Below are positions 5,306 through 31,543 of a stretch of 64,000 nucleotides of DNA, piece after piece. The stretch covers positions 155,918 to 219,917 of the forward strand of contig DYIF01000001.1 in NCBI GenBank assembly GCA_020723765.1, in the 5' to 3' direction. Below the pieces are notes generated by a model. That model was not told the DNA's origin. It searched no databases and worked only from the letters and a program-made list of their open reading frames with translations. This stretch comes from Elusimicrobium minutum (GTDB taxonomy: Bacteria > Elusimicrobiota > Elusimicrobia > Elusimicrobiales > UBA9959). Positions within the stretch are counted from its first letter, which is position 1, and each line of letters begins with the position of its first letter. Position numbers and translations under genes: made by a program.

Positions 5306-5706
5306 CTATCCTCTATTTTATTCTCCTTATTATCAAGCTCTGCGCTCATTATAACATCTTTTACCGTAAGCCCCACAAGCCATCTGTCTATATGTTCTCT
5401 CATATTTTTATAAAGTTTTATGGCTATGCTTTTTGAATCTATATCCGGAGCGGAGTTATAAGTAAAAGCCTCTATCAAATCGCTTACGTTTATATCGTCT
5501 AAATTTTTCACCAATCTAAACCTTTTTCCTTTCTTAGACTCGACCCAGCCGGTATGAACAAGGGTCTGCATAACTTTATTACAATAGGCCATAGGAAGCT
5601 TTTCCATTTTAGATATATCGCTTATCTGAACCCAATTGTTGTGTCCGTATTTATCTAAATACCTTAAACAACAAAGCCCGTAAGCTAAAGTTTTATTTAT
5701 CTTCAT
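5302..5706 (-). CDS. Rrf2-family transcriptional regulator lacking the iron-sulfur cysteines
   Basis: Small winged-helix regulator of 134 residues. The N-terminus (MKINKTLAYGLCCLRYLDKY) followed by a recognition-helix region (ISDISKMEKLPMAYCNKVMQ) and a wing (GWVESKKGKRFRLVK) match the Rrf2/BadM layout. I chose ATG 5706 because AAAGGCGG lies 6 nt upstream; an ATG at 5730 would add eight residues. Rrf2 members that sense iron-sulfur clusters carry three Cys in the C-terminal third. This protein has none there, only CC near the start and one Cys in the recognition region, so it probably senses something else. Its stop overlaps the start of the giant secreted protein (ATGA), making that gene its likely main target. 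Autoregulation is suggested by the palindrome over the promoter. Confidence 0.85.
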   Translation of the reverse strand: MKINKTLAYGLCCLRYLDKYGHNNWVQISDISKMEKLPMAYCNKVMQTLVHTGWVESKKGKRFRLVKNLDDINVSDLIEAFTYNSAPDIDSKSIAIKLYKNMREHIDRWLVGLTVKDVIMSAELDNKENKIEDR

Positions 5707-5720
5707 AAATCCGCCTTTAA

Positions 5721-5743
5721 CATCGGACATTTTTTATCCGATG
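5721..5743 (-). promoter_or_regulatory. Inverted repeat in the leader of the Rrf2 gene
   Basis: CATCGGA at 5721-5727 pairs with TCCGATG at 5737-5743 around a 9-nt loop. In the mRNA this hairpin sits just before the AAAGGCGG ribosome site, so it could modulate translation; it could equally be a DNA operator half-site pair. Confidence 0.4.
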
Positions 5744-5759
5744 TATAAACATAAAAAAA

Positions 5760-5777
5760 TTGGCATAATGATGCCAA
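5760..5777. promoter_or_regulatory. Operator-like palindrome at the Rrf2/giant-gene promoter
   Basis: TTGGCATAATGATGCCAA is a perfect inverted repeat with 7-bp arms and a 4-bp centre. It lies directly downstream of the -10 box (5785-5790) on the minus strand, over the expected transcription start. A repressor binding here would block initiation. The Rrf2 protein encoded just downstream is the natural candidate, which is an inference. Confidence 0.55.
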
Positions 5778-5784
5778 TAAGTAT

Positions 5785-5812
5785 AGTATAGCAGAAATTA
5801 AAAATAAATCAA
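5785..5812 (-). promoter_or_regulatory. Sigma70-type promoter for the Rrf2-giant protein operon
   Basis: On the minus strand TTGATT (5812-5807) and TATACT (5790-5785) are separated by 16 nt. A second TATACT follows at 5785-5780. The promoter lies across the end of the upstream nucleotidyltransferase gene, so the Rrf2 gene need not be read from that gene's promoter. Confidence 0.6.
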
Positions 5813-5815
5813 TAG

Positions 5816-6631
5816 CTAACTTGATAACTTTTCTTTTATTTTGTTAAACTCATAAAAAAACGGAAGAATATACTCGTTTAATTCAAAATGTTTATAAAAA
5901 CACATCTTTATAAAAGGATAAGATAAACGTTCTTTAAAACCGATTTTAGTTTTTTTGAAATCTATCCCGCATTTTTTAAGAGCCAGCGAAACAATTAGAG
6001 AAACTCCGTATTGTCGGGCTCTATTCAAAATTTCCAAATCTATACCTTGATTATTAATTTTGGCTTTAGAATAAACCGAAATGAAATCTTTTTTGTCTTT
6101 TTCGCTAAAAAAACCGTGTTTTATAATAGGATGAACCGCCAATATTATTAAAGTATCAGAATCGGCTAATAATTTAATTTTTCTATATTCTTTTGTTTCT
6201 TCGCAATTAAAATCTTCAAACTTAAAATTTGAAAAATAAGTATGTATGTCGAGTATTACCGGCGCAAATTTTTCCCCTACGATTTTATAATAAGAATGCC
6301 TTCCTTTTGTGATTTTTTTAAATCCTAAAAGTTTAATACCTTCCTCAACCGCCAAAAAATCTTTCTCTTTTACTATAAGATCCGCATCGCTCATCTCCCT
6401 CTCGTCTAAACCTAAATATCCTTTCAAAATAAGAGATGCTCCTTTAAAAAGAATTACATCCATATTTTTTTTAAAAAGCAGCTCGTCCAATTTTTTTAAC
6501 TCGCTTAAAATCAAAACGTTCCTTATTTTTATTTTATATCTATCTTCTTGCGCCATTTCTATCATATAACCAAAACCTAATTTGCTTTTTTGGGGCGATA
6601 GCTTATTTTTAGCGAATTTAGTTTTAGGCAT
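5816..6631 (-). CDS. Nucleotidyltransferase-fold family protein (NTP_transf_5 type)
   Basis: 271 residues. The stretch LILSELKKLDELL...MDVILFKGASLI...REMSDADLIV fits the uncharacterised nucleotidyltransferase family often called NTP_transf_5: helix, FKGASL, then an R-x-x-x-D-x-D metal-binding-like motif. Substrate and role are unknown; relatives often occur near surface polysaccharide or peptide-modification genes. The first 20 or so residues are encoded by a short DNA repeat that also occurs outside any gene at 6683-6717, so ATG 6565 (MIEMAQEDRY) may be the original start and 6631 an extension gained by repeat insertion. The gene is divergent from mntP. A promoter for the next gene lies over its 3' end, so it is probably a single-gene transcript. 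Confidence 0.72.
   Translation of the reverse strand: MPKTKFAKNKLSPQKSKLGFGYMIEMAQEDRYKIKIRNVLILSELKKLDELLFKKNMDVILFKGASLILKGYLGLDEREMSDADLIVKEKDFLAVEEGIKLLGFKKITKGRHSYYKIVGEKFAPVILDIHTYFSNFKFEDFNCEETKEYRKIKLLADSDTLIILAVHPIIKHGFFSEKDKKDFISVYSKAKINNQGIDLEILNRARQYGVSLIVSLALKKCGIDFKKTKIGFKERLSYPFIKMCFYKHFELNEYILPFFYEFNKIKEKLSS
6584..6616. repeat. Short interspersed repeat, copy 1 (inside a coding region)
   Basis: A 33-bp sequence recurs 101 bp away at 6685-6717. Read on the minus strand it encodes KFAKNKLSPQKSK near the N-terminus of the nucleotidyltransferase-fold protein. In this copy one terminal base has changed (TTGCT instead of TTCGCT). Confidence 0.85.
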
Positions 6632-6682
6632 TTAATAATACTTATCCTGTCCCGATCCATTTTAATATTATATAAATTAAAT

Positions 6683-6717
6683 TCGCTTTTTTGGGGCGAT
6701 AGCTTATTTTTAGCGAA
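6683..6717. repeat. Short interspersed repeat, copy 2 (intergenic)
   Basis: About 35 bp bounded by TTCGCT and AGCGAA, which are reverse complements, with a GGGGCGATAGC core. It lies in the 138-bp divergent spacer between the nucleotidyltransferase gene and mntP. Size and terminal inverted repeats suggest a REP-like or miniature element; only two copies are visible here. Confidence 0.8.
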
Positions 6718-6754
6718 ATTATAAACGGGTATAGCGAAAGATATAAGACAAAAA

Positions 6755-6769
6755 TGCTAAAATTATTCT
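6755..6769 (+). promoter_or_regulatory. Extended -10 promoter for mntP, probably giving a leaderless mRNA
   Basis: TGCTAAAAT (6755-6763) is an extended -10 element (TGn plus TAAAAT). It ends 6 nt before the ATG at 6770, so initiation about 7 nt downstream would fall on the start codon. No ribosome-binding site precedes the ATG and no good -35 is visible. Confidence 0.5.
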
Positions 6770-7336
6770 ATGAGTTTCATAGAAATAATGCTTATAGCTT
6801 TAAGCCTTTCTTTGGATTGTTTCGCCGTAAGCATCTCAAGCGGCGGAACGATGAAATTTTTTAGTTTTAAAAATTTGTTTAAAATGTCTTTTTTCTTCGG
6901 ATTTTTCCAGAGCATGATGCCTGTAGTCGGGTATCTGGCGGGAAGAGGTTTTGTGGAGTATATACAAAAGTTTGACCACTGGATAGCCTTTTTTTTGCTT
7001 TTTGCCGTAGGAGCGAAGATGGTATATGAAAGTTTTAAACTGGAGGATTTAAACTGCGACGAAAATGAAAAATGCCCTTTCGGCATTCAAACTCTTATAA
7101 TTTTGTCCTTTGCCACCAGCATAGACGCTTTAGCTATAGGATTTTCTTTTTCACTCCTAAAAATCTCAATAATAACCCCGGTAATAATAATCGGAATCGT
7201 TTCTTTTGTTATGAGCGTGATAGGAATAAACTTAGGATATAACGGGAAAAAACTATTCGGGAACAAAATGGAATTAATAGCCGGGATAATACTCATCGGT
7301 ATAGGATTAAGGATACTTTTAACTCATTTAATTTAA
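6770..7336 (+). CDS. mntP: Manganese efflux pump MntP
   Basis: 188-residue membrane protein of the MntP (formerly YebN/DUF204) family, which exports Mn2+ across the inner membrane. The two halves carry the family motifs: IALSLSLDCFAVSISSG near residue 10 and LSFATSIDALAIGFSF near residue 115, each with the conserved Asp in a membrane helix. About six hydrophobic helices are seen and the length is typical. No Shine-Dalgarno sequence is seen and the -10 box is only 6 nt away. The stop TAA abuts the start of the ABC ATPase, so this and the next two genes form one operon. I see no yybP-ykoY (manganese) riboswitch upstream; the leader is essentially absent. Confidence 0.9.
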   Translation: MSFIEIMLIALSLSLDCFAVSISSGGTMKFFSFKNLFKMSFFFGFFQSMMPVVGYLAGRGFVEYIQKFDHWIAFFLLFAVGAKMVYESFKLEDLNCDENEKCPFGIQTLIILSFATSIDALAIGFSFSLLKISIITPVIIIGIVSFVMSVIGINLGYNGKKLFGNKMELIAGIILIGIGLRILLTHLI

Positions 7337-7963
7337 ATGATTTTATTGAAAAACATATGCTTTTCATATTATTCCGAGCTTTTTAAATTAAAAACCAAAG
7401 TTTTTGAAAATTTTAACGCTCAATTTGATAAAGACAAAATATATACCCTTACCGCTCCAAACGGTTACGGAAAAACCACTCTTCTAAAAATAATCGCGGG
7501 TTTTTTAGTCCCTCAAAAAGGAGAGTTGAGAATAGAAAATTCAGTAGTAGATTTTAAAAATTTTCCATACGATAAAATATCTATTTTTTATAATCAGGAA
7601 AGGGTTTTTTATAATCAGTTAACCGTAAAAGAAAATTTATATTTCTACGGTTTTTCAAATATGGAAGGAATAATAAACGGGTTAACTTATGTTAACCTAA
7701 AAACGGAGTTTTTATATGAAAAATTCGAAAATCTCTCCTCGGGAAATAAGGCCAAAGCGGTTTTAATTAAAAATATTATGGAAAACAAACCAATCATGCT
7801 GCTTGACGAGCCTTTTTCTTATCTCGACCCGGAGAGCAAAGAATCGATTAAAAGATATTTAACCGAAATAAAAAAAGAAAGATGCGTAATAATAGCCACA
7901 AACAACGAAAAAGAAATAAAAGAGATATCGGACGAGACGATAAGGATGATAGATGTTAAATAA
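7337..7963 (+). CDS. ABC transporter ATP-binding protein with degenerate motifs
   Basis: 208 residues, one ABC ATPase domain. Walker A is APNGYGKTT (first Gly replaced), the signature is LSSGN instead of LSGGQ, Walker B is IMLLDEP, and the switch region reads ATNNE where a His is usual. It should still bind ATP through GKTT, but turnover may be slow, as in some CcmA-like or ABC-2 systems. It begins at the base after the mntP stop and overlaps the permease by 11 bp, so it pairs with the permease as a simple ABC-2 exporter. The substrate is not evident. An 18-bp near-perfect palindrome lies within the gene at 7680-7697. Confidence 0.88.
   Translation: MILLKNICFSYYSELFKLKTKVFENFNAQFDKDKIYTLTAPNGYGKTTLLKIIAGFLVPQKGELRIENSVVDFKNFPYDKISIFYNQERVFYNQLTVKENLYFYGFSNMEGIINGLTYVNLKTEFLYEKFENLSSGNKAKAVLIKNIMENKPIMLLDEPFSYLDPESKESIKRYLTEIKKERCVIIATNNEKEIKEISDETIRMIDVK
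7680..7697. repeat. Near-palindrome GGTTAACTTATGTTAACC inside the ABC ATPase gene
   Basis: Differs by one base from the perfect palindrome at 8755-8772 at the end of the same operon. It codes for part of NGLTYVNLK, so coding need alone does not explain the match. It may be a protein-binding site pair or chance. Confidence 0.6.
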
Positions 7964-8744
7964 AACAAAAATTTTTTTAGCAAAGAATTTTTTAATAGAC
8001 AAACATTACAAATTTTCGTTTATGGCTCAGTTGTTTTCTTTATTATTAACATTACTAATATTCTTTTTCATAGACAGTTTTTTTAAATCCGAAGTTCAAA
8101 AACATATCGATTTAAACATAAATTATTTCTCTTACATATTCGTTTCATTCGTCATTTTTAACTACTCCGGAGGCGGAAACTTAATATATCAGAAAATAAA
8201 CTTCGATATAACTTCGGGTGTATTTGAGTTTATAGTAAACGACAAAAATACCGTAATCCCTTATTTAATTTCTCTCTGGATATACTCTTTCTTATTATCC
8301 ACTTTGGAATCTTCGGTTTATTTCATAATAGCTTATTCTTTAGGTTTAATAAAACCGAATTTAAATTTAATTTCTTTTTTTGCGTTAATACTTATATCTT
8401 CCGCGGTATTTTCCTCGGTTTATATAATAACATCATCTTTTGCGATTTTATTTAAAAAAGGAGATATTTTTTCGTTTATATTTTCGGTTTTTGAAAGCTT
8501 ATTTGCGGGGGTTTATTTTCCAATATCGGTACTTGGAGATTTTTCAGGATTATCCGAAATGATTCCTCTTACACATTCGATAAAAGCAGCCCAGAAAATA
8601 TTTTATGAAAACGCTTACTTTTGGGAATTAAAAGAATTTTATATTATTTTATTTTTTTCACTAATCCTTTGTCCTTTATCTATATATATATTCAAAAAGT
8701 CGGTTTATACAGCAAGAAAATTGGGAAATCTAAATAAATACTAA
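7953..8744 (+). CDS. ABC-2 type transporter permease
   Basis: 263 residues with about six hydrophobic segments (roughly 20-42, 58-75, 105-130, 140-168, 172-200, 228-248), typical of ABC-2 permeases. The segment FAGVYFPISVLGDFSGLSEMIPLTHSIKAAQ matches the conserved region before the last helix in drug or polysaccharide ABC-2 exporters. The start overlaps the ATPase stop by 11 bp, so the two are coupled and form the exporter. It is the last gene of the mntP operon and ends 32 bp from the convergent hutU. Why an ABC-2 exporter is joined to a manganese pump is unclear. Confidence 0.88.
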   Translation: MLNKTKIFLAKNFLIDKHYKFSFMAQLFSLLLTLLIFFFIDSFFKSEVQKHIDLNINYFSYIFVSFVIFNYSGGGNLIYQKINFDITSGVFEFIVNDKNTVIPYLISLWIYSFLLSTLESSVYFIIAYSLGLIKPNLNLISFFALILISSAVFSSVYIITSSFAILFKKGDIFSFIFSVFESLFAGVYFPISVLGDFSGLSEMIPLTHSIKAAQKIFYENAYFWELKEFYIILFFSLILCPLSIYIFKKSVYTARKLGNLNKY

Positions 8745-8754
8745 AAAAGCTTTT

Positions 8755-8772
8755 GGTTAACTTAAGTTAACC
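8755..8772. terminator. Perfect 18-bp palindrome between convergent genes, possible bidirectional terminator
   Basis: GGTTAACTTAAGTTAACC is perfectly palindromic and lies in the 32-bp gap between the permease (plus) and hutU (minus). A 7-bp stem with a TTAA loop is possible in both RNAs. An AAAAGCTTTT block flanks one side, but the stem is AT-rich and a clean U-tract is missing, so an operator is also possible. Confidence 0.45.
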
Positions 8773-8776
8773 CGTC

Positions 8777-10420
8777 TTACCTTTTCATCGGTATTTTTAT
8801 ATTCTTTTTCCTGGCAAATTTTACGGCGGTATCGTAGCCGGCGTCGTAATGCCTTAATACTCCCATAAGAGGGTCGTTGGTCAAAACCCTTTCTATCCTC
8901 TTTGACATCTCTTTGGTTCCATCGCAAACCACAACCTGGCCCGCATGCAAGGAATACCCCATACCGACCCCGCCTCCGTGATGAAAACTTACCCAGCTCG
9001 CTCCGCTTGCGGTATTTAACAAAGCATTCAAGATCGGCCAGTCGGCTATGGCGTCGGAGCCGTCTTTCATAGATTCGGTTTCTCTAAACGGGCTTGCCAC
9101 CGAGCCGGAATCCAAATGGTCTCTTCCTATTACCAGCGGAGCGGATATTTTGCCTTTCTTAACCATCTCGTTAAACTTAAGGCCCAAAATATGCCTTTCG
9201 TCGTAACCCAACCAGCATATTCTTGCTGGAAGCCCCTGGAAATGGACTTTCTTTGAAGCCATTTTTATCCATCTTACCATTGTCTCGTTTTTTGGAAATG
9301 TTTCAAGAGCCAATTTATCCGTAACCTCTATATCCTTGGGGTCTCCGCTTAAAACCGCCCATCTAAAAGGGCCTTTTCCTTCGCAGAAAAGTTCTCTTAT
9401 ATATGCGGGGACAAAACCGGGAAAATCGTACGCGTTTTGAACCCCCTCTTTATAAGCCATTGTCCTTATGTTATTTCCGTAATCGAATACTATGGTTCCT
9501 TTTTTCATAAAACCCAGCATAGCCTGCACGTGCTCGGCCATGGATTTCATAGACATTTTTACATATTTATCCGGGTCTTTTTTTCTCAAATCCGCCGCTT
9601 CTTTTAAACTCAAACCATTTGGCACATAGCCGTTTAACGGGTCATGAGCCGATGTTTGGTCGGTCAAAACATCTATTTTAACTCCCATTTTAAGCATCTT
9701 CGGCAACAACTCCGCGCAGTTACCCAAAAGCCCTATAGATATCGGTTTTTTTTCTTTAATGTATTTTTCGGCGGTATTCAAAGCCTCATCAAGCCTTTCG
9801 GTCATGGTATCGAGATAACCGGTTTTTAACCTCTTTTGTATTCTTTCCGGATCTACTTCTATTATTATCGCAACCCCGTTGTTCATAGTAACGGCAAGAG
9901 GCTGAGCCCCGCCCATTCCTCCAAGACCGCCGCTTACCACAAGTTTTCCGGTAAGATCCGATTTAAAATGTTTCTTCGCGCAAGCGGCAAACGTCTCGTA
10001 TGTTCCTTGAAGTATACCCTGCGTTCCTATATAAATCCATGAACCGGCCGTCATCTGCCCATACATCATTAAACCCTTTTTTTCAAGCTCGTTAAAAACA
10101 TCCCAGTTGGCCCAGTTGCCCACAAGATTAGAGTTTGCTATTAAAACCCTCGGCGCATACTCGTGAGTTTTAGCTATGCCTACCGGTTTTCCGGACTGAA
10201 CCAAAAGGGTTTCGTCGTTTTCTAACTCCTTTAAACTTTTTATTATCGCCTTATAACACTCCCAGTTTCTTGCGGCTTTTCCTCTTCCGCCGTATACTAT
10301 CAAATCCTCGGGCTTTTCCGCAACCTCGGGATCCAGATTATTCATAAGCATTCTCATCGCGGCTTCCTGATTCCATCCTTTACAGCTAAGCTTATTTCCT
10401 CTCGGAGCTCTTATAACCAT
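8777..10420 (-). CDS. hutU: Urocanate hydratase
   Basis: Second enzyme of histidine breakdown: adds water to urocanate to give 4-imidazolone-5-propionate, using tightly bound NAD+ as electrophile; cytoplasmic. Length 547 is typical. Visible family features are the Gly-rich NAD-binding segment [12 protein letters not shown] at about 163-174, the catalytic-Cys region [15 protein letters not shown], and the family signature [15 protein letters not shown] followed by [17 protein letters not shown]. Strong GGAGG ribosome site 5 nt before ATG 10420. It follows hutH by 12 bp and is the last gene of the long minus-strand operon. Imidazolonepropionase (hutI), needed for the next step, is not in the window. 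Confidence 0.97.
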
Positions 10421-23181: not shown

Positions 23182-23847
23182 CTAAGGGATAAAAACCGTA
23201 GTATTGGGGCCTATATCCCGTATTATCTTCCTTATATCTTTAATTTTCGCTTTTTTAACATATTCTTTGGATTTTAAAAAATCGTAAGCGATAAGATACA
23301 AATTACGGGATTTATTGAAACTTTTAAAAACAAATTTTATAAATTCTTCTCTATATGAACCATCTATTTTATTGAAAGCGTCGAGATTAAATATCAACGA
23401 ATTTTTAAAATCGCAAGAATTATGTTTAAGCATATTCATCGGATAAAAAAACACTGAAAACTCAAAAACTCTAATTTTGAATTTTTTCATAACCATATTT
23501 ATCACATAATCAAAAGACGAAACCGCGGGAATTACTTCCACTTTTATTCTTTTTTTGCGAAAATAAGAATAAATATTTAGAGAAACGATATTCAAAAAAA
23601 GAGGATTACCCCGAGTAAGATACACGACGGTTTTATAATTATAAAACAATTTTTCTATTTGTTTTATTAAATCCGTATCGGAAGAACCGTTATTAATAAA
23701 CCTATAACCGTCCGGCTTAAGTTTTTTAAGCTCATTTTCCGAGTAAAAATTGCTAACCAATATATCGGATTGAGAAATAATTTTAATAACCTTTAAAGAC
23801 AAATCGTCCCAATCCAACCCTACCGAACAAATATACAATTTTTTCAT
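23182..23847 (-). CDS. Tetrapyrrole-methylase-fold SAM-dependent methyltransferase (OphMA/borosin-like?)
   Basis: 221 residues. The fold is seen in LYICSVGLDWDDLSLKVIKI at the start, VVYLTRGNPLFLNIVS (the GDP-type loop) and VEVIPAVSSFDYV (the PG-SS loop), all in the order of tetrapyrrole methylases. The usual GxGPG loop is degenerate. The ending NTTVFIP resembles the ...STLxIPP end of the OphMA-like/borosin alpha-N-methyltransferases as I remember them, not a cobalamin-pathway enzyme; no other corrin gene is present. I see no precursor peptide in the flanking 145 and 84 bp. It is divergent from a three-gene exporter. Methyltransferase fold is likely; a peptide substrate is speculation. Confidence 0.68.
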   Translation of the reverse strand: MKKLYICSVGLDWDDLSLKVIKIISQSDILVSNFYSENELKKLKPDGYRFINNGSSDTDLIKQIEKLFYNYKTVVYLTRGNPLFLNIVSLNIYSYFRKKRIKVEVIPAVSSFDYVINMVMKKFKIRVFEFSVFFYPMNMLKHNSCDFKNSLIFNLDAFNKIDGSYREEFIKFVFKSFNKSRNLYLIAYDFLKSKEYVKKAKIKDIRKIIRDIGPNTTVFIP

Positions 23848-23854
23848 AAAAACT

Positions 23855-23860
23855 ATTATA
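23855..23860 (-). promoter_or_regulatory. -10 box directly before the methyltransferase start
   Basis: Minus-strand TATAAT ends 7 nt before ATG 23847, with no ribosome-binding site in between. This predicts a transcript that begins at or one base before the start codon. Confidence 0.45.
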
Positions 23861-23919
23861 TAAATTTACAAGACACATTATTTGTTTTCAAGCTTAAAAC
23901 TATTCTTGTAATATAAAGT

Positions 23920-23925
23920 TATAAT
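23920..23925 (+). promoter_or_regulatory. -10 box directly before the TolC-like gene
   Basis: TATAAT lies 6 nt before ATG 23932 with no ribosome-binding site. The predicted start site coincides with the ATG, so the exporter mRNA may be leaderless. The divergent methyltransferase promoter is 60 bp away in the same 84-bp spacer. Confidence 0.5.
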
Positions 23926-23931
23926 ATATTT

Positions 23932-25164
23932 ATGAGATTTTTATTTTCTTTTTTTTTATTTATGATAGTTTCTCTTAATATTTATCCGGCCGAAAACCAG
24001 AACACGCTTAACTTTGAAAAGGCGAAACAAATATTAATAAACGAAAACAAAGAACTTAAAGCCATAAGATATCAAATAGAAAAAGCGAAATTAGAAAAAC
24101 AAAATTCTTATAAAAAATCATACCCCGATATAAAAGGCGTTTTTTCTTATTCCAGAACCGGAACTCAATTATCATCATCAAATTTATATTCTTTGGGCGC
24201 AAATTTGACTATGCCGATAATAAACTATGAAATAAATTATTTGAAAACATATTCCGATATAGAGATATCCAAAATAGAAGCGGAGTATAAAACCAAATTA
24301 TCTCAACTGCTATATGAACTCAGAGTTTTGTTGGCAAACATAACAGAATACAAAGAACTATATAATATATCGATTTCAATAGCCGAAAAAAGAAAAAAGA
24401 ATTACGATATAATAAAAATGAAATACAATTCTGGACTGGAAAGCAGATCGGCTTTGCTTGAGACCGAAACCGCCCTAAAGTTAGCTTTATGGGAAATGGA
24501 TAACTATAAAAACAAAATATCAATATATGAAAAAAAACTAAATCTATTGTTAAATAGGCCAATAGACAATAAAATAGAAGAAATAGAAATTGCTCTGCCG
24601 GATTCTGAACTTAATTTAAACTTAAATGAGATTGTAAATCTACATCCTGAAGTTTTAAAAACCAGACTATGGATAAGCCAGCAAAAGGCTTTGATAAAAT
24701 TAAAAACAAACGAAAGGCTTCCACAACTTAATTTTTCTTCCAGCATATCCAAATCTGGCGCAGATATAAAGCTACAGAACAAAAGCTGGGACATATCCGC
24801 ATCTCTTTCGGTACCGATATTTTCAAGCGGAAAAATATCTTTAGAGGAAACTATAGAAAAGAAAAATCTTTCTAAATTAGAAGAAGATTTAAATACACTG
24901 ATAGAAACCATTTATGTAAATTCCTACGAAAAATTAATAGATTTCAACCAATCCCTATCATATTATGAAATCGCTAAATCTTCTTTAGAATCGGCTAAAA
25001 CCAGGGCATGGCTTGTAGAAACACAATACTTAAACGGGCAAAGCTCTTATTTTGAGTGGAAAACCGAACAGGACAGGGTTATAAATGAAGAAAAAAATCT
25101 TATAATATCAAAAAGTGGAATAATTATAAAATATGCTGATTTTTTAAGATCTATCGGAGAATAA
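23932..25164 (+). CDS. TolC-family outer membrane efflux protein
   Basis: 410 residues with a signal peptide (RFLFSFFLFMIVSLNIYPA). Two OEP-type halves: the first begins FEKAKQILINENKELKAIRYQIEKAKLEKQ and contains YPDIKGVFSYS; the second begins LNEIVNLHPEVLKTRLWISQQKALIKLKTNERLPQLNFSSS. These are the usual entry points of the barrel strands and long coiled coils of TolC channels. It is the first gene of the exporter operon, one base before the membrane-fusion gene. It would form the outer-membrane exit for the MacB-type transporter. Confidence 0.9.
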   Translation: MRFLFSFFLFMIVSLNIYPAENQNTLNFEKAKQILINENKELKAIRYQIEKAKLEKQNSYKKSYPDIKGVFSYSRTGTQLSSSNLYSLGANLTMPIINYEINYLKTYSDIEISKIEAEYKTKLSQLLYELRVLLANITEYKELYNISISIAEKRKKNYDIIKMKYNSGLESRSALLETETALKLALWEMDNYKNKISIYEKKLNLLLNRPIDNKIEEIEIALPDSELNLNLNEIVNLHPEVLKTRLWISQQKALIKLKTNERLPQLNFSSSISKSGADIKLQNKSWDISASLSVPIFSSGKISLEETIEKKNLSKLEEDLNTLIETIYVNSYEKLIDFNQSLSYYEIAKSSLESAKTRAWLVETQYLNGQSSYFEWKTEQDRVINEEKNLIISKSGIIIKYADFLRSIGE

Positions 25165-25165
25165 A

Positions 25166-26110
25166 ATGAGAAAAATATTTAAATCAAAAAAGATTGTTAT
25201 AATTTTAACAATATTTTTTTTAATATCTATAATATACGCTCACTCAAGAATAAAAAACAAAAAACAATTAAATAATATTTTAAAGACAATGCAAGAATTT
25301 ACCATAAAAAAATCAAATCTCACTATAAAGACGCAGGTTAACGCAATAGTAGAATCGGATAATAGGGTAGGAGTAATGCCTACGGTAAACGGGAGATTAG
25401 AAGAACTATACGTAAAAGAGGGAGACAAGGTTGAATGCGGGCAAATATTAGCAAAAGTCAGTTCAAGCGAAAGAACCGCTCTTTTAGATTCCATTAAAAC
25501 CTCCTCATATACGGAATATGAAAGAAAGATAATAGAAGAATCTTATAAATTGACGCCGGTGGTATCCCCAATAAATGGAACCGTAATAAAAATATACGGA
25601 GAGGTCGGGCAGTCGGTATCGGTTTCAAAAGAAATACTTGTAATATCTCATAAGCTTATAATAAAAGCATTTGTAGATGAAATAGATATAGGTAAGATAA
25701 AAGAAGGACAGGACGTAGAGTATTATCTGGACTCTTTTCCCGAGTTAATATTAAAAGGAAAAGTGGCTTCCATATCCCTCGACTCTGTCGAAAAAAACGG
25801 CGTAAATGTATACGAAGTCAAAATAATACCGATTGACAAAAAAGAGATATTACGCTCGGGAATGAACGCTAACGTAAATATATTAACCGGGTTTAAAAAA
25901 AACGCAATAACAATACCAAAAAAAGCAATTACATATATATCAGCAAATCCTTATGTGAAAATAAAAGAAAATGATAAATTAAAAGACATTCAAATAACCT
26001 TGGGAGATTCCGACGAAAATATGATAGAAGTGAAATCGGGATTAGAAGAAAATATGAAAATATATTATTCAACTCACGTAAAAGAAGAATCATTTCGTTT
26101 TATAAACTGA
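25166..26110 (+). CDS. HlyD/MacA-type periplasmic membrane fusion protein
   Basis: 314 residues: N-terminal membrane anchor (about 9-27), a split lipoyl-like domain (GRLEELYVKEGDKVECGQILAKV about 75-97, and PVVSPINGTVIKIYGEVGQSV about 130-150), then beta-barrel and membrane-proximal parts. Only about 30 residues separate the lipoyl halves, so the alpha-hairpin that normally reaches TolC is very short. Its start lies one base after the TolC-like stop, with GGAG upstream overlapping the previous gene, and it ends one base before the MacB-type gene. It links inner-membrane ABC pump and outer channel. Confidence 0.9.
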   Translation: MRKIFKSKKIVIILTIFFLISIIYAHSRIKNKKQLNNILKTMQEFTIKKSNLTIKTQVNAIVESDNRVGVMPTVNGRLEELYVKEGDKVECGQILAKVSSSERTALLDSIKTSSYTEYERKIIEESYKLTPVVSPINGTVIKIYGEVGQSVSVSKEILVISHKLIIKAFVDEIDIGKIKEGQDVEYYLDSFPELILKGKVASISLDSVEKNGVNVYEVKIIPIDKKEILRSGMNANVNILTGFKKNAITIPKKAITYISANPYVKIKENDKLKDIQITLGDSDENMIEVKSGLEENMKIYYSTHVKEESFRFIN

Positions 26111-26111
26111 A

Positions 26112-28070
26112 ATGAAGAGATTAATAAATATAAAAAATGCGTCCAAGATATACTCTAACGGAAGGTTTTATGTTAAAGCATTAGATAATGTAAACTTAAC
26201 AATAGATCAAGGAGAATTCATATCTATAGTAGGACCTTCCGGATCAGGGAAATCCACATTACTTCATATAATAGGATTTTTAGATAGGTTAGACGAAGGG
26301 GAATATTATTTCTCCGGAGAAAACGTATCTAATTTCACGGATATAAAATTAAGTTTTTTAAGATCGAAAACAGTTGGATTTGTTTTTCAATCTTTTCATC
26401 TTTTAAAAAATACCACCGCATTAGACAACGTCATGCTGGCAATGAGCTACGGTGGAAACCAAAAAGACAAGAACAAAGCTTTAAAAAGTCTCGAAATGGT
26501 GGGACTTTTGGATAGAATAACCCATAAACCGAACGAACTATCCGGTGGGCAATTACAAAGAGTCGCCATAGCAAGAGCTCTTGTCAAAGATCCTATATTA
26601 ATACTCGCCGATGAACCAACCGGAAATCTCGATTCAAAATCAAGAGCTGAAGTCATGCAAATATTTAGGGAGTTAAATAAACTCGGTTTTACCATAATTA
26701 TAGTTACACACGATGAGGATATAGCGAGAGAAACCGACAGAATAATTAGAATGAAGGACGGAAAAATAACAAATCAGGAGATTATTAAAACCTCGAAAGA
26801 ACCCTCAATAACAACAGGAAACAAAATAGTATACGAAAAATCTTATTTTTCCTTTTTTGAATTAAAAGAGCAGATATCTTCAGCTCTTAAATCAATATTT
26901 ACAAACAAACTTAGAAGCTTGCTTACCATACTCGGGATATTTATAGGGGTTTCTTCCATAATATCTTTAATGACCGTAAGCGATGGATTAATGAAAATGA
27001 TACTTTCCTCAACCACCTCGGAAGATAGTAAAAAATTATGGGTTTCTACAAAATATCATCACATCAAAAAACCAAAAAAACTTACGATAAAAGAAGTTGA
27101 AGCGATAAAGACAATGGTACCTCTTGCCGAGAAAGTAAATCCTTCCATATACAGAAAAGTTAAAACTTCTTATATGGATAGAAAAATAGAAGCATACATT
27201 CATACTCCTTCAGGAGAAACCATAGAAAAACAAAGCCAACAGGATTTTAAGTTTAACGGCTTAAAAGTATACGGCAGGGTATATACTCCAGAAGAAGAAA
27301 CACAAATGGAAAAGGTGGCGGTGTTAAACAAAACAGCCGCGAGCAAGTTATTTAAAAATGATAATCCGATTAACTCTCAAATTAAGATAAACGAAATTAC
27401 TTTTAAGGTTATAGGTGTAGTAGAAGATAGAGAAATAGAGTCGCTATTTGGAACCAGCCCTCAAATATATATACCCATCAATACAGCCATGAAAAGATTA
27501 ATAGGTGAAAAATATATAGATTCTATAGAAATCATAGCACCGTCTCCACCCCAGGCCCAAATAGCAAGAGAACAAACCGTAACTGCCTTGAGAAAATTAC
27601 ATAATAAAAAAGATTATGAAGACGATGATTTTGAAGTAAATACTTTCGATGTCCAGATAAATGAATTTAAAAATATAATGTCGAAAATATCTTTGGGTGT
27701 ATATATAGTTGCGGGGATATCTCTCCTTGTCGGCGGCATAGGAATAATGAATATAATGTTTGTAAGTGTAACCGAAAGAACAAAAGAAATAGGAATAAGG
27801 AAAGCTTTAGGAGCAAAAAAAAGCGACATATTGATACAGTTTTTAATAGAATCATCCATACTTTGTTTAATAGGCGGAACTATGGGAATATTCGCAGGAT
27901 ATTTTATATCATGGATAGCGCATTTTATAATAAAAATAAAGCCTTCAATAAATATTGGAACTATATTTTTCGCTTTTGGATTTTCAACGCTAATAGGAAT
28001 AATTTTTGGAATATGGCCAGCATCTAAAGCGGCGAAATTAAACCCCATAGACGCTTTAAGATATGAATAG
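26112..28070 (+). CDS. MacB-type ABC transporter, ATPase fused to FtsX-like permease
   Basis: 652 residues. ATPase domain (1-about 230): Walker A GPSGSGKST, Q loop FVFQSFHLL, signature LSGGQLQR, Walker B LILADEPTGNLDS, His of THDED, all intact. Then an FtsX-type permease: first helix LRSLLTILGIFIGVSSIISLM (about 270-290), periplasmic MacB core domain (about 300-515) and three helices near the C-terminus (VYIVAGISLLVGGIGIMNIM; LIESSILCLIGG; FFAFGFSTLIGIIFG). This is the mechanotransmission exporter architecture; substrates in the family include peptides, lipoproteins and macrolides, and none can be chosen from sequence. Last gene of the exporter operon. Confidence 0.92.
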   Translation: MKRLINIKNASKIYSNGRFYVKALDNVNLTIDQGEFISIVGPSGSGKSTLLHIIGFLDRLDEGEYYFSGENVSNFTDIKLSFLRSKTVGFVFQSFHLLKNTTALDNVMLAMSYGGNQKDKNKALKSLEMVGLLDRITHKPNELSGGQLQRVAIARALVKDPILILADEPTGNLDSKSRAEVMQIFRELNKLGFTIIIVTHDEDIARETDRIIRMKDGKITNQEIIKTSKEPSITTGNKIVYEKSYFSFFELKEQISSALKSIFTNKLRSLLTILGIFIGVSSIISLMTVSDGLMKMILSSTTSEDSKKLWVSTKYHHIKKPKKLTIKEVEAIKTMVPLAEKVNPSIYRKVKTSYMDRKIEAYIHTPSGETIEKQSQQDFKFNGLKVYGRVYTPEEETQMEKVAVLNKTAASKLFKNDNPINSQIKINEITFKVIGVVEDREIESLFGTSPQIYIPINTAMKRLIGEKYIDSIEIIAPSPPQAQIAREQTVTALRKLHNKKDYEDDDFEVNTFDVQINEFKNIMSKISLGVYIVAGISLLVGGIGIMNIMFVSVTERTKEIGIRKALGAKKSDILIQFLIESSILCLIGGTMGIFAGYFISWIAHFIIKIKPSINIGTIFFAFGFSTLIGIIFGIWPASKAAKLNPIDALRYE

Positions 28071-28373
28071 CTCAAAGCCAAAAGTCTCAAGAAGTTCAAT
28101 GTCTAATAACAGAGAATAGAGAGGAGAGATTAGAGACTATAAGTTATATGTTTGAAGTTTAAAGTTGCACGAAAGGAATAAAAAGTCGTAAGTTTAAAGC
28201 TTAATGTTCAATGTTTTATGTTTAAAGTTGTAAGTTTTAAGTTAATTCAAATACCCAATAAAACAATACAATTTTCTATACATCCATACATCTACACATC
28301 TATACATCTAATTGTCTAATCGTCCACGCCTCCATACATCTATGCATCTATACAACTTTATTAGAGAAGGGTT
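28071..28373. other. Gene-free spacer with quasi-repetitive AT-rich DNA
   Basis: About 300 bp between convergent macB and the methionine synthase reactivation gene. No frame of plausible length or start is seen. The first two thirds are built from variants of AAGTTTAA/AATGTTTA words; the last third is an 8-bp-period array. I see no GC-rich terminator hairpin, although both flanking operons end here. Confidence 0.8.
28270..28357. repeat. Tandem array of 8-bp units, consensus ATACATCT
   Basis: Eleven consecutive octamers fit without a gap; ATACATCT occurs three times exactly and the others keep most positions (for example ACACATCT, ATACATCC, ATGCATCT, AATTGTCT). Read on the other strand the unit is AGATGTAT. 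The flanking AAGTTTAA-type words before 28270 have a similar period. Confidence 0.85.
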
Positions 28374-29123
28374 TTAATAGTCTGATTTGGGGTTATGTAA
28401 AATTATGGACTGAACGGAAGATTCGGGCTCTATCATAAAACTTTCGGTTATGGACGAGCCAATCTCTTTTGCGTTTAACAAATCGTATATTTTTTTGTTT
28501 GCGGATATATCTATCGAAGGATATCCCGGCGAAAATCTTTTGCCAGACCCGTTAGAAAAAACAGAGTTTAAATTTAAACTATTATCGATACCGAAATCCA
28601 CATTAACCTGTTTATGAAGTATTTCGCAAAAAGCCTCCGCGCTCATTACGGCTATGGAGTTTATTATGTATAATTTTGAAAAGTCTTTATTGGAAAGAAG
28701 ATTTTCAAATACCCCTTCGTTTAAAAAAACGCTTACAGAACTAAAGCCCACGTAATCCTCTTCTCCTATAAAATCCGCGAGACAAATCCCTTTAGAATTT
28801 TGTTTTGTTTCTATTCGTTCAATCTCGTTTCCTTCATCGTCTTTTATTATTATAAAATTTGAGAAAGAAGAGGCTTTAAAAACTTTGGAAACGCCTTTCG
28901 GTATTATCGATTTTTTTTCTATTATCTCTTTTTTTATCTCCGATATCTGGTTTTCAAGTTTTACAAGTTTATCTTTTTGAGATTTTTTTAGATTGAAAAA
29001 ACGGAAATAAAGCATATCGTAATTGATGGCTTCAAATATTTTTTCAATATCGTAATCCTCGAATTTCCTTCTTGTTAAATTCGGATTTTTTAATTTATAA
29101 TCGGGTTTTAGATTTTTTTCCAT
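28374..29123 (-). CDS. Stand-alone methionine synthase reactivation (AdoMet-binding) domain protein
   Basis: 249 residues. The C-terminal motif RFSPGYPSIDI followed by IGSSITESFMIEPESSV is the AdoMet-binding signature of the MetH activation domain, which reductively methylates inactive cob(II)alamin. In standard MetH this is the last domain of a single chain of about 1,200 residues. Here it is a separate protein whose start overlaps the end of the catalytic gene by 16 bp, so both are translated together. A Lys/Glu-rich coiled-coil-like stretch (about 45-75) may hold the two polypeptides together. The electron donor is not in the window. Confidence 0.9.
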   Translation of the reverse strand: MEKNLKPDYKLKNPNLTRRKFEDYDIEKIFEAINYDMLYFRFFNLKKSQKDKLVKLENQISEIKKEIIEKKSIIPKGVSKVFKASSFSNFIIIKDDEGNEIERIETKQNSKGICLADFIGEEDYVGFSSVSVFLNEGVFENLLSNKDFSKLYIINSIAVMSAEAFCEILHKQVNVDFGIDNSLNLNSVFSNGSGKRFSPGYPSIDISANKKIYDLLNAKEIGSSITESFMIEPESSVQSIILHNPKSDY

Positions 29124-31543
29124 TCGCAGGCTACCTTTACTCCGTCGATCGCATCTTTAGAATAAAAAGAATTTTCGTAAATCGGCTTTATTTTGGTTAA
29201 AACGAATCTTTCGGATAGTGCCGCTCCGCCTAAAAGCAAAGGAACGGCTATATTATTTTCTTTTAATTTTAAAGCGGTTTCTATCATATACTCGCAAGAT
29301 CTGGCCAAAAGCCCGGAAAGACCTATAAAATCCGGCTTTTCTTTCAATACGCTTTCGACTATTATTTCGGGCTCCACCTTTGTTCCTAAGTCCACCACAT
29401 CAAATCCGTTAGACTCAAATATTATAGAAACCAGATTTTTCCCTATATCGTGAACGTCCCCTTTAACCGTAGCGAGCAAAAGTTTGCCTCTTTTAAACGA
29501 ATCTTTTTTCATATGAGGTTTTAAAAGGTCTATCGCTTTTTGAGAAACCGAAGCGCAGGACAAAACCTCGGTAACTATATACTCCCCTTTTGAAAACTTT
29601 TCTCCGACCTCGTTCATGGCGGGTATTATAAAATTGTTTATTATAAAATCGGCTGGATATTTTAAAAGCAAAGAATCGATAACGCTTTTAATTTCCCCGG
29701 CCCCTTCCACTATTATTTTTCTAAGCGATTCTTCCTCGGACAACCTTTTTTCTTGCATATTGTTTTGAGTTTTTTTGCCCGAAGTTTTCTCTACAAGTTC
29801 CTTTATAAGATCCGGCTCTCCGTTTAAAATCTTCTCCGAAATATATCTTATTTCCTTATCTATCAAGGCGTATGGGATTTTTTCCATAACGTTTAGTATC
29901 GCAAAATCCAGACCTTTTTTAATACTCATATAAAGAAAAACCGAATTTAAATATTTCCTTGTTATTTGGGGCAGACCGAAAGAAACATTGCTTAATCCTA
30001 AGATGGTTTTAAAACCTTTTTTATTTATTTCTTCTACCGCCAAAAGAGTATCGTATGCGGATTTTTTATAATCAGCCGTAGCGATAGGAAATACCAGAGG
30101 GTCAAATATTATGTTATTTAGATCCGCATCTTTATCTTTTAAAAATTTAACGGCTCTTTCAAATATTTTCATCTTTTTTTCAAACTCGAAAGGCATTTTT
30201 TTGTCTTCGTCTATAAGCCCGCAGACCAAAACGCAACCGTATTTTTTTTGAAGATAAACAGCTTTTAAAGTTTTTTCTTCTCCGTTTTCGAAATTTATGG
30301 AATTTAATATAAGCTTTGAGCCGACAATCTTTAAAGCCGTTTCGAAAGAGTCGATATTTGTGGAATCTATCATAATTGGAATTCTAACATTAGAAGCGAC
30401 CAAAGGAAGAAATTTTAAAATATCATTTTTTTCGTCTCTTTCGGGATTTATAAAAGATATATCGAGCAAATGCGCACCTTTTTGAACCTGTTCTTTGGCT
30501 AAGCTTATTATACCGTCGGTATCGGAGTTTGAAACCATATCTCTAAATTTTTTGCTGCCTAAAGCATTTAACCTCTCTGCGGCTAAAAACGGTTTTTCTA
30601 TATCATCTTCAAATATTGAGATTTTATGCGCTATTGAAAACTTTTTTTCTTTTTTTATATCTCTCGGTTTTATGTTTTTAAGCGACTCGGAGATGGATTT
30701 TATATGTGACGGGCCCGTTCCGCAACAACCGCCCACTATATTAATAAATCCCTTATTAGCGTAATCGGTTAAGGTTTGGGAAAACGATTCGGGAGACAAA
30801 TCGTAACCGCCTTTTTCATCGGGAAAACCCGCGTTTGGCATTATCAATGTGGGAAAATGAGAGATATCCGAAAGAGTTTTTATAAAAATCTCCATATCCT
30901 TTGGACCTACGGAACAGTTTATTCCTAAAGCCAACAAATCGAAATCGGATAAGTTTGAACAAACGGATTTAATATCGTGCCCGCTTAACATAAAACCGTT
31001 TGAATTTAGTGTTACCGATGCTATAATCGGAAGTTTTTTAGGTCCGAATATTTCATACGCCGCGCAAAGACCGGCTTTTAAATTAATCATATCGTGAGCC
31101 GTTTCAAATATCGCAAAATCCACTCCGTAATTAAAAAGTATTTCCAACTGTTTTATGTAAGCGGTTTTTATTTCGTCAAAATCGTATTTTGAACCCAAAG
31201 AAAGAGATACGGTTAGAGGGCCGATACTTCCGCATATATAAATTTTTTTATTTGCCTTTTTTACGGCATTTTTGGCTATTAAAACGGCTTTTTCGTTTAA
31301 TTCTTTGAAATATTCTCTTTTACCAAATTCCGTAAGAGATATTAAGTTTGAATTAAAAGTATTCGTTTCAATGACATCCGCTCCCGCTTTTATATAAGAC
31401 AAATGTATATCTTCTATTATCTCCGGTTTGGTAAGATTTAAAAAATCGTTCGGAAGGTTATCATTTTTTTTAATTCTTTTAAAAACCTCTGTCCCCATCG
31501 CTCCGTCGAAAATCAAAATACGCTGGTTTAATTTTAAATCCAT
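29108..31543 (-). CDS. metH: Cobalamin-dependent methionine synthase, catalytic modules only
   Basis: 811 residues. Domains in order: homocysteine methyltransferase (1-about 290; zinc-binding Cys in GINCSVG and GGCCGTGPSH), methyltetrahydrofolate/pterin-binding domain (about 310-560), helical B12 cap, and B12 domain (about 680-811) with the base-off motif DVHDIGKNLV whose His binds cobalt. The reactivation domain is missing and is supplied by the next gene. It makes methionine from homocysteine and methyl-THF. No ribosome-binding site precedes ATG 31543; instead TGATATAAT ends 6 nt away, so the mRNA may be leaderless. No cobalamin riboswitch is seen in the 93-bp upstream gap. Confidence 0.94.
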   Translation of the reverse strand: MDLKLNQRILIFDGAMGTEVFKRIKKNDNLPNDFLNLTKPEIIEDIHLSYIKAGADVIETNTFNSNLISLTEFGKREYFKELNEKAVLIAKNAVKKANKKIYICGSIGPLTVSLSLGSKYDFDEIKTAYIKQLEILFNYGVDFAIFETAHDMINLKAGLCAAYEIFGPKKLPIIASVTLNSNGFMLSGHDIKSVCSNLSDFDLLALGINCSVGPKDMEIFIKTLSDISHFPTLIMPNAGFPDEKGGYDLSPESFSQTLTDYANKGFINIVGGCCGTGPSHIKSISESLKNIKPRDIKKEKKFSIAHKISIFEDDIEKPFLAAERLNALGSKKFRDMVSNSDTDGIISLAKEQVQKGAHLLDISFINPERDEKNDILKFLPLVASNVRIPIMIDSTNIDSFETALKIVGSKLILNSINFENGEEKTLKAVYLQKKYGCVLVCGLIDEDKKMPFEFEKKMKIFERAVKFLKDKDADLNNIIFDPLVFPIATADYKKSAYDTLLAVEEINKKGFKTILGLSNVSFGLPQITRKYLNSVFLYMSIKKGLDFAILNVMEKIPYALIDKEIRYISEKILNGEPDLIKELVEKTSGKKTQNNMQEKRLSEEESLRKIIVEGAGEIKSVIDSLLLKYPADFIINNFIIPAMNEVGEKFSKGEYIVTEVLSCASVSQKAIDLLKPHMKKDSFKRGKLLLATVKGDVHDIGKNLVSIIFESNGFDVVDLGTKVEPEIIVESVLKEKPDFIGLSGLLARSCEYMIETALKLKENNIAVPLLLGGAALSERFVLTKIKPIYENSFYSKDAIDGVKVACEWKKI

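What the first reader, a model, noticed from the sequence alone, without database searches (positions are those of the whole stretch)
23182..28070. Possible peptide-methylating and export locus: OphMA-like methyltransferase opposite TolC/MFP/MacB
The 221-residue tetrapyrrole-methylase-fold protein has the three fold motifs but a degenerate Gly loop and an ...TTVFIP end like borosin methyltransferases, and no corrin-pathway genes surround it. It shares an 84-bp promoter region with a dedicated exporter. A split borosin-type peptide system is a speculative but checkable reading; no precursor gene is visible here.
Basis: inference. Interest (0 to 1): 0.58.

Follow-up and report, generated by a model that had tools for sequence, protein, structure and literature searches.

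The report
Orphan methyltransferase from a peptide-tailoring family
The gene codes for a methyl-transferring enzyme shaped like those that methylate peptide backbones in mushrooms, but without their key active-site residues or partner peptide; its nearest relatives lie inside clusters that appear to modify histidine-rich peptides, so it is probably a stray copy from such a pathway, and its exporter neighbour looks accidental.

Summary
The genes are real and correctly placed: a 221-aa tetrapyrrole-methylase (TPm) protein divergent from TolC-MFP-MacB, 84 bp apart. The split-borosin reading is not supported. The SonM residues Y58/R67/Y71 occur together in 0 of 49 relatives. No LigA/SonA-type precursor was found in 37 genomes. 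A tree grouping the window's clade with SonM and OphMA is rejected (AU p=7.6e-5). The exporter operon recurs in two related genomes without the methylase. The fold intuition was partly right: the window model's nearest solved structures are borosin methyltransferases (Z 20.2 against 15.5 for the next kind), though a paralogue's poorer model is equivocal. The unexpected result is that the protein belongs to a family found so far only in Elusimicrobiota. Its supported clade (96/96) otherwise holds copies in or beside His-Xaa-Ser (Hxs) radical-SAM peptide clusters. This genome has such a cluster on another contig, with two paralogues, an HxsA4 repeat peptide and HxsB maturases. Best reading: an accessory methyltransferase derived from an Hxs-type pathway, relocated beside an unrelated exporter. 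Substrate unknown.

The parts
23182..23847 (-). TP-methylase-fold protein, 221 aa; member of an Elusimicrobiota family related to but distinct from OphMA/SonM and YabN
   Evidence: PF00590 47.8 bits; AF2 model pLDDT 90.6; VIA Z 20.2 to SonM; tree; all 14 invariant or nearly invariant family positions kept
23848..23931 (.). 84-bp divergent intergenic region, AT-rich; no promoter signal above chance in the scanned region
23932..25164 (+). TolC-family outer membrane efflux protein; judged not functionally tied to the methylase
   Evidence: PF02321 103.6 bits; orthologues beside MFP and MacB in G027:C88 and G002:C138 without a TPm
25166..26110 (+). periplasmic adaptor (MFP, MacA/HlyD-like)
   Evidence: TIGR01730 100.7 bits, cut-off 94.9
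26112..28070 (+). MacB-type ABC exporter
   Evidence: PF12704, PF02687, PF00005; MacB NF007826 467 bits, below its equivalog cut-off 966

Best explanation
The window gene encodes an intact, probably active SAM-dependent methyltransferase of an Elusimicrobiota-specific branch of the TP-methylase superfamily (borosin/YabN-like fold). It descends from copies that work in expanded His-Xaa-Ser (Hxs) radical-SAM peptide-maturation clusters. There, a His-rich HxsA4 repeat peptide is presumably modified by HxsB/HxsC-type radical-SAM enzymes, and the methylase adds a methyl group to the peptide or to an intermediate, at an atom other than, or by chemistry other than, the borosin amide. This copy has moved away from the cluster to sit divergently beside an independently conserved TolC-MFP-MacB exporter; it either serves the Hxs locus on contig C20 in trans or has taken a related substrate. 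Shown: fold, family, clade, physical linkage of the relatives to Hxs genes, exporter independence elsewhere. Inferred: activity, substrate, action in trans.
For: Tree: window protein in a 96/96 clade of six with G000:C20 (two copies), G021:C76, G027:C138 and G001:C5. These lie in or beside radical-SAM clusters; C20, C76 and C138 hold HxsB and HxsA4, G001:C5 holds the M20, cyclophilin, rSAM and U32 flank genes. C20:99574-100239 overlaps radical-SAM genes by 4 bp on both sides; the G027 and G021 copies overlap the upstream gene by 4 bp. A distant member in another family-level group lies between HxsC4-like and HxsC genes (G171:C114, L148); another lies 85 bp after HxsB with HxsA4 about 1.4 kb on (G024:C43, L053). 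8 of 47 copies of about 60 bits or more lie within 25 kb of an HxsB, 1.09 expected, P=5e-6. Window copy keeps all 14 conserved positions. Exporter operon without TPm in G027 and G002.
Against: 39 of 47 family copies are not within 25 kb of an HxsB; most sampled ones sit in other settings, e.g. Wzy/PLD-like genes or beside SecA, so the family is not tied to Hxs alone. All 32 TPm genomes have HxsB, but so do 35 of the 36 sampled genomes of the window's own family, so co-occurrence is confounded by kinship. 24 of 56 HxsB genomes lack a TPm copy of that strength: Hxs works without it. The window itself has no HxS repeat or HxsA leader motif. The window copy is only 25-34% identical to its clade mates and has R where 37 of 49 have Y at the SonM Y93 position. 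No expression or activity data.
Confidence: 0.45

Rival explanations
1. Split borosin: the protein alpha-N-methylates the backbone of a separate BBD-type precursor that the divergent TolC-MFP-MacB exports.
For: Window model is closest to SonM, OphMA and MroMA (49 of the top 50 Foldseek rows; VIA rows 1-32); ends in TTVFIP; exporter adjacent.
Against: SonM Y58/R67/Y71 together in 0 of 49 relatives; the Y58 column is a gap in 47 of 49; those residues matter for activity in SonM (PMC8429565, passages). PF07746: none of 37 genomes over the cut-off, best in G000 12 bits, while SonA itself scores 25.3. SonA query: nothing in G000, none of 37 below E 0.09. Tree uniting the window clade with SonM+OphMA rejected, p=7.6e-5. 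Paralogue model does not separate borosin from corrin enzymes clearly.
Confidence: 0.05
2. Small-molecule or tetrapyrrole methyltransferase: the family methylates a cofactor or pigment intermediate, and the Hxs linkage reflects radical-SAM cofactor chemistry rather than peptide tailoring.
For: PF00590 family; best single curated match CbiE 32.8 bits. One member (G020:C40) overlaps a NifDK-like gene and lies near a NifH-like one next to its Hxs cluster, and nitrogenase-like reductases are known (recalled) to act on tetrapyrroles. U32-family and B12-type radical-SAM proteins are in the clusters.
Against: All corrin and RsmI matches are far below cut-off and nearly all cover only the N-terminal half. 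By Pfam the genome has no other TP-methylase than RsmI, hence no CobA/CbiE/CobM set. The NifDK neighbour is a single case; its sister G234:C33 lacks it in the stretch read.
Confidence: 0.25
3. The methylase and exporter form a real two-part locus: the exporter secretes the methylated product.
For: Divergent, 84 bp apart. MacB-type exporters can export modified peptides (recalled); the MacB protein scores 231 bits against the darobactin exporter ATPase model, below its cut-off of 375.
Against: Exporter orthologues in G027 and G002 have other neighbours. The genus-mate G001 has the sister TPm but its best MacB match is only 43% identical, the same kind as a paralogue on G000:C21. Adjacency seen in one genome only. 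Promoter matches at chance.
Confidence: 0.15
4. Decaying orphan paralogue with no present function.
For: Low GC (27.8% against 39.1% for the window), long branch, Y to R change at the SonM Y93 position.
Against: Full-length intact frame with all 14 conserved family positions; confident fold (pLDDT 90.6).
Confidence: 0.1

Closest known systems
SonM / OphMA (borosin peptide alpha-N-methyltransferases)
   Same: Overall fold (VIA Z 20.2 to SonM 9cgw_A, rmsd 2.5 over 214 residues; 19.3 to OphMA 5n0t_A) and the C-terminal TxLxIP(P) strand.
   Different: About 14% identity; lacks the Y58 loop, R67 and Y71; no BBD precursor, no fused core peptide; separate clade.
YabN (NF052436) TP-methylase domain
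   Same: Family members match it into the C-terminal part (e.g. L048 residues 71-231 on 70-219, 30.2 bits); SonM's best NCBIfam match is also YabN, 37.9 bits. YabN ends TSLYVPP.
   Different: No MazG pyrophosphohydrolase domain; the window protein itself has no YabN match at E 0.1. YabN methylase function unknown to me (recalled).
His-Xaa-Ser system (HxsA4/HxsB/HxsC; Haft and Basu, recalled, and cited as reference 10 in PMC9062424)
   Same: The window protein's paralogues are embedded in such loci.
   Different: As far as I recall the published system has no TP-methylase; the motif is said there to rely putatively on HxsB and HxsC (PMC9062424, passages). The window copy is not in such a locus.
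Corrin TP-methylases CbiE/CobI/CobM and diphthine synthase
   Same: N-terminal SAM-binding half (CbiE 32.8 bits; the family profile's best PDB sequence match is diphthine synthase, 41.4 bits over positions 5-111).
   Different: Far below curated cut-offs; nearly no C-terminal match; no corrin set in the genome.

Membership tests
Borosin alpha-N-methyltransferase (split) | Fold nearest to SonM/OphMA | tested here: met
   but a paralogue model is equivocal: Z 15.8 to SonM against 14.2 to CysG, and Foldseek ranks CobM first
Borosin alpha-N-methyltransferase (split) | Active-site Tyr/Arg/Tyr (SonM Y58, R67, Y71) | tested here: not met
   Window has gap, G, D; together in 0 of 49 relatives
Borosin alpha-N-methyltransferase (split) | Groups with SonM and OphMA in a tree | tested here: not met
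   AU p=7.6e-5 against it; the 49 family rows are one side of a branch, 95/83.8. Only two borosin sequences were used
Borosin alpha-N-methyltransferase (split) | BBD/LigA-type precursor in the genome | tested here: not met
   PF07746 and SonA searches of 37 genomes, own included; control SonA = 25.3 bits. A diverged BBD could be missed
Borosin alpha-N-methyltransferase (fused) | Core peptide fused to the enzyme | tested here: not met
   Protein ends at TTVFIP
Borosin alpha-N-methyltransferase | Backbone N-methylation activity | not testable with these tools
   needs enzyme assay
Corrin/siroheme TP-methylases (CbiE, CobI, CobM, CobA) | Score over the curated family cut-off | tested here: not met
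   CbiE 32.8 of 92.9 bits; others under 15 bits
RsmI | Match to the RsmI model | tested here: not met
   Not among the window protein's five NCBIfam matches at E 0.1; the genome's RsmI is another gene, TIGR00096 205 bits
YabN | TP-methylase plus MazG domain, NF052436 over cut-off | tested here: not met
   221 aa, no MazG; no match at E 0.1
His-Xaa-Ser system component | Encoded in a locus with HxsA and HxsB | tested here: not met
   No HxS repeat in the window and no HxsB or HxsA4 hit on contig C6 in the genome-wide searches; met for the paralogues on C20
Hxs-linked TP-methylase clade | Position in the clade of Hxs-linked copies | tested here: met
   96/96 clade of six
MacAB-TolC exporter | MacB ATPase plus periplasmic core plus FtsX, with adaptor and outer-membrane protein | tested here: met
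   Domains; equivalog cut-offs for MacA and MacB themselves not reached

The most novel reading that the evidence does not exclude
Elusimicrobiota use borosin-fold TP-methylases as tailoring enzymes of His-Xaa-Ser peptides, in a diphthamide-like logic: radical-SAM enzymes decorate histidines of the (Gly-Ser-His)n HxsA4 repeats, a TP-methylase (the superfamily of diphthine synthase) methylates the added group, and a Dph6-like ATP-dependent ligase (PF01902 52.1 bits; within 10 kb of HxsB in 11 of the 16 own-family genomes with a hit) amidates it. The window copy would act on the same or a related peptide, with the MacB system as a recruited exporter.
Probability: 0.08. Interest if true: 0.87.

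Novelty: new variant of a known kind. Interest (0 to 1): 0.5.

Why it matters
As far as I recall the chemistry of His-Xaa-Ser peptides is unknown, although HxsB/HxsC maturases and their repeat peptides have been annotated since Haft and Basu. A SAM-methyltransferase family embedded in these loci, overlapping radical-SAM genes by 4 bp, gives a specific, testable tailoring step and a mass signature (+14 Da steps) to look for. It also shows that a borosin-like fold and a TTVFIP end do not by themselves predict backbone N-methylation, which matters for automated RiPP mining.

Tried and rejected
Split-borosin reading: tested by residues, tree, precursor search and fold; only the fold agrees. Exporter-linked reading: synteny in G027, G002, G001 and G000:C21 does not support it; the methionine-synthase neighbourhoods read (G001 and G027) do not match the window either. 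Small precursor ORF next to the gene: only frames of about 21-33 aa lie free in the gaps, none followed further; no HxS repeat or SEEGK leader anywhere in the window. Rfam: nothing at gathering threshold in the window or in L111. PADLOC: no match for four proteins. Viral contigs: no relative of the window protein or of YabN by short peptide patterns. Genome contigs with the single window protein: nothing; with subset A2: 29 loci, 26 titled Elusimicrobia/Elusimicrobiota/Elusimicrobiales and 3 'bacterium'. These pattern scans cannot exclude members elsewhere.

Rows dropped: the linkage count used 47 copies of about 60 bits or more read off; weaker rows (RsmI- or corrin-like, and members of the tandem arrays of G207, G217 and G230) were left out. 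The 25-kb test uses uniform placement and ignores contig ends. The first tree held RsmI, which fell weakly beside two outliers (81/33); the second left out RsmI and the CbiE row for long branches. In A1, 23 of the 28 homologues were used. The second model (paralogue C20:99574) had pLDDT 83.5 and did not separate borosin from corrin folds well: told as a result against.

Literature: (all 10 searches); none of the listings showed a TP-methylase in an Hxs locus or an Hxs system in Elusimicrobiota. Seen: PMC8429565, PMC9062424, PMC11395268, PMC8692599 (passages found by term); others only as listings. Haft and Basu's paper was not read.
Full report
What is there. The window carries a 221-aa reading frame at 23182-23847 (-) and, 84 bp away on the other strand, a tight TolC (23932-25164), adaptor (25166-26110) and MacB (26112-28070) operon. 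Pfam gives TP_methylase 47.8 bits for the first and OEP, HlyD and MacB/FtsX/ABC domains for the others. Flanking genes are FTCD and a two-gene B12-dependent methionine synthase. The genome (2.1 Mb, 32 contigs, 98% complete) has four TP-methylases by Pfam: RsmI and three members of the present family. It therefore shows no corrin-methylase set, and the window protein misses every corrin cut-off by a wide margin (best CbiE 32.8 of 92.9 bits).

Family. Single-sequence search found homologues in 20 of 61 genomes (own included), most aligned over the full length. Twenty-three aligned members share [S/G]xG(L/M), TYGNPxFLN, AVSSFD and a C-terminal TLFIPA; the window protein keeps all 14 invariant or nearly invariant positions. 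The profile matches 49 of 247 phylum genomes at 1e-5, where the rows under about 60 bits include RsmI and probably corrin enzymes. A pattern scan of named genomes gave 29 loci, 26 of them titled as Elusimicrobia, Elusimicrobiota or Elusimicrobiales and 3 just 'bacterium'; so the family is, as far as seen, of Elusimicrobiota.

Is it a borosin enzyme? For: the AlphaFold model (pLDDT 90.6) has borosin methyltransferases in 49 of the top 50 Foldseek rows. On the VIA scale SonM scores Z 20.2 (rmsd 2.5, 214 aligned) and OphMA 19.3, with the first other kind, uroporphyrinogen methylase 1v9a, at 15.5. Against: the paralogue C20:99574 modelled the same way gave a poorer model (83.5) in which SonM (15.8) barely exceeds CysG (14.2) and Foldseek ranks CobM first. 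SonM Y58, R67 and Y71, shown by mutation to matter in SonM (PMC8429565, passages), are never found together in 49 relatives; the Y58 loop is a gap in 47 of 49. A tree with SonM, OphMA, YabN, CobA, CobI, CobJ, CobM, CbiE and RsmI (classical references labelled) puts SonM and OphMA together (100/99) away from the family. With RsmI and CbiE removed the 49 rows are one side of a branch (95/83.8), and forcing the window clade together with SonM and OphMA is rejected at p=7.6e-5. No LigA-type precursor exceeds the cut-off in 37 genomes, while SonA itself reaches 25.3 bits; the SonA sequence finds nothing in the own genome and nothing below E 0.09 elsewhere. The TTVFIP end is shared with YabN. So: works with a similar fold, not a member.

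Is the exporter part of it? Orthologues of all three exporter genes stand together in G027:C88 (37, 50 and 58% identity) and G002:C138 (33, 50 and 57%) with other neighbours and no methylase. The genus-mate G001 has the sister methylase on C5 but only 43%-type MacB matches. The association is seen once. Consensus promoter matches are at chance level.

Where the relatives lie. The two paralogues of this genome are on contig C20, 4.9 kb apart, in a locus of many radical-SAM proteins. That locus holds an HxsA4 His-Xaa-Ser repeat peptide (86.5 bits, cut-off 55), two HxsB above cut-off (479.7 and 485.6, cut-off 370), HxsC-like and PapB-like proteins, U32-family proteins, an M20 peptidase, a cyclophilin and a Dph6-like ATPase. 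The copy at 99574-100239 overlaps radical-SAM genes by 4 bp on each side. The same set with a methylase recurs in G027:C138 and G021:C76. Separately placed members lie 85 bp after HxsB in G024:C43, between HxsC4-like and HxsC genes in G171:C114 (another family-level group), and next to the Hxs locus in G020:C40. In all, 8 of 47 copies lie within 25 kb of an HxsB, against 1.09 expected by uniform placement (P=5e-6). All 32 genomes with such copies have HxsB and, read off the listing, HxsA4. That statement is weakened by kinship, since 35 of the 36 sampled genomes of the window's own family have HxsB, and 24 of 56 HxsB genomes lack the methylase.

The window copy belongs to that set by descent. 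In the tree it falls in a 96/96 clade of six with C20 (two), G021:C76, G027:C138 and G001:C5. The G001:C5 copy stands with the same M20, cyclophilin, U32 and radical-SAM genes near a contig end. Identity to clade mates is only 25-34%, so function may have drifted, and the Y93-equivalent is variable in this clade (R in the window).

What it most likely does. I hold that it is a SAM-methyltransferase derived from Hxs-type peptide tailoring, acting in trans on the C20 products or on a related substrate, and beside the exporter by accident (0.45). Counter-evidence is told above; in particular most family members sit elsewhere (Wzy/PLD-like operons, SecA, others). The main rival is a small-molecule role (0.25), with one NifH/NifDK-adjacent member as its best clue. 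The boldest reading not excluded is a diphthamide-like route on the histidines of HxsA4, because radical-SAM enzymes, a TP-methylase and a Dph6-like ligase meet in one locus; the Dph6-like match is weak and nothing shows histidine chemistry (0.08).

Novelty. None of the ten literature searches listed a TP-methylase in a His-Xaa-Ser locus or an Hxs system in Elusimicrobiota. PMC9062424 (passages) says that the His-Xaa-Ser motif putatively relies on HxsB and HxsC. I file this as a new variant of a known kind.

Noticed in passing
window 33715-63999 (-): One open frame of at least 10,094 codons running off the window end, repetitive and surface-protein-like by eye.
   Followed up: no
G000:C20 about 93-171 kb (L038, L111, L212, L213): Large radical-SAM region with two HxsA4 repeat peptides (near 115 kb and 170 kb), four HxsB-type hits, several B12-type radical-SAM proteins, a 398-aa membrane protein and a 356-aa protein without Pfam match.
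   Followed up: partly
L145 (G207:C10), L147 (G217:C10), L151 (G230:C83): Tandem arrays of three to four divergent TP-methylase-like genes in another family-level group of the phylum.
   Followed up: no
L055 (G020:C40) 5597-10322: A TP-methylase of this family overlaps a NifDK-like gene, itself next to a NifH/NifDK-like fusion, beside an Hxs cluster.
   Followed up: partly
L111 5983-6690 and 15 other own-family genomes: Dph6-like PF01902 ATPase within 10 kb of HxsB in 11 of 16 own-family genomes with a hit.
   Followed up: partly
window 28374-31543: B12-dependent methionine synthase split into an 811-aa catalytic part and a 249-aa activation-domain protein overlapping by 16 bp.
   Followed up: no
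window 28071-28373: Low-complexity repeats (TTTAAAGTT- and CATCTATA-like) between MacB and the activation-domain gene.
   Followed up: no
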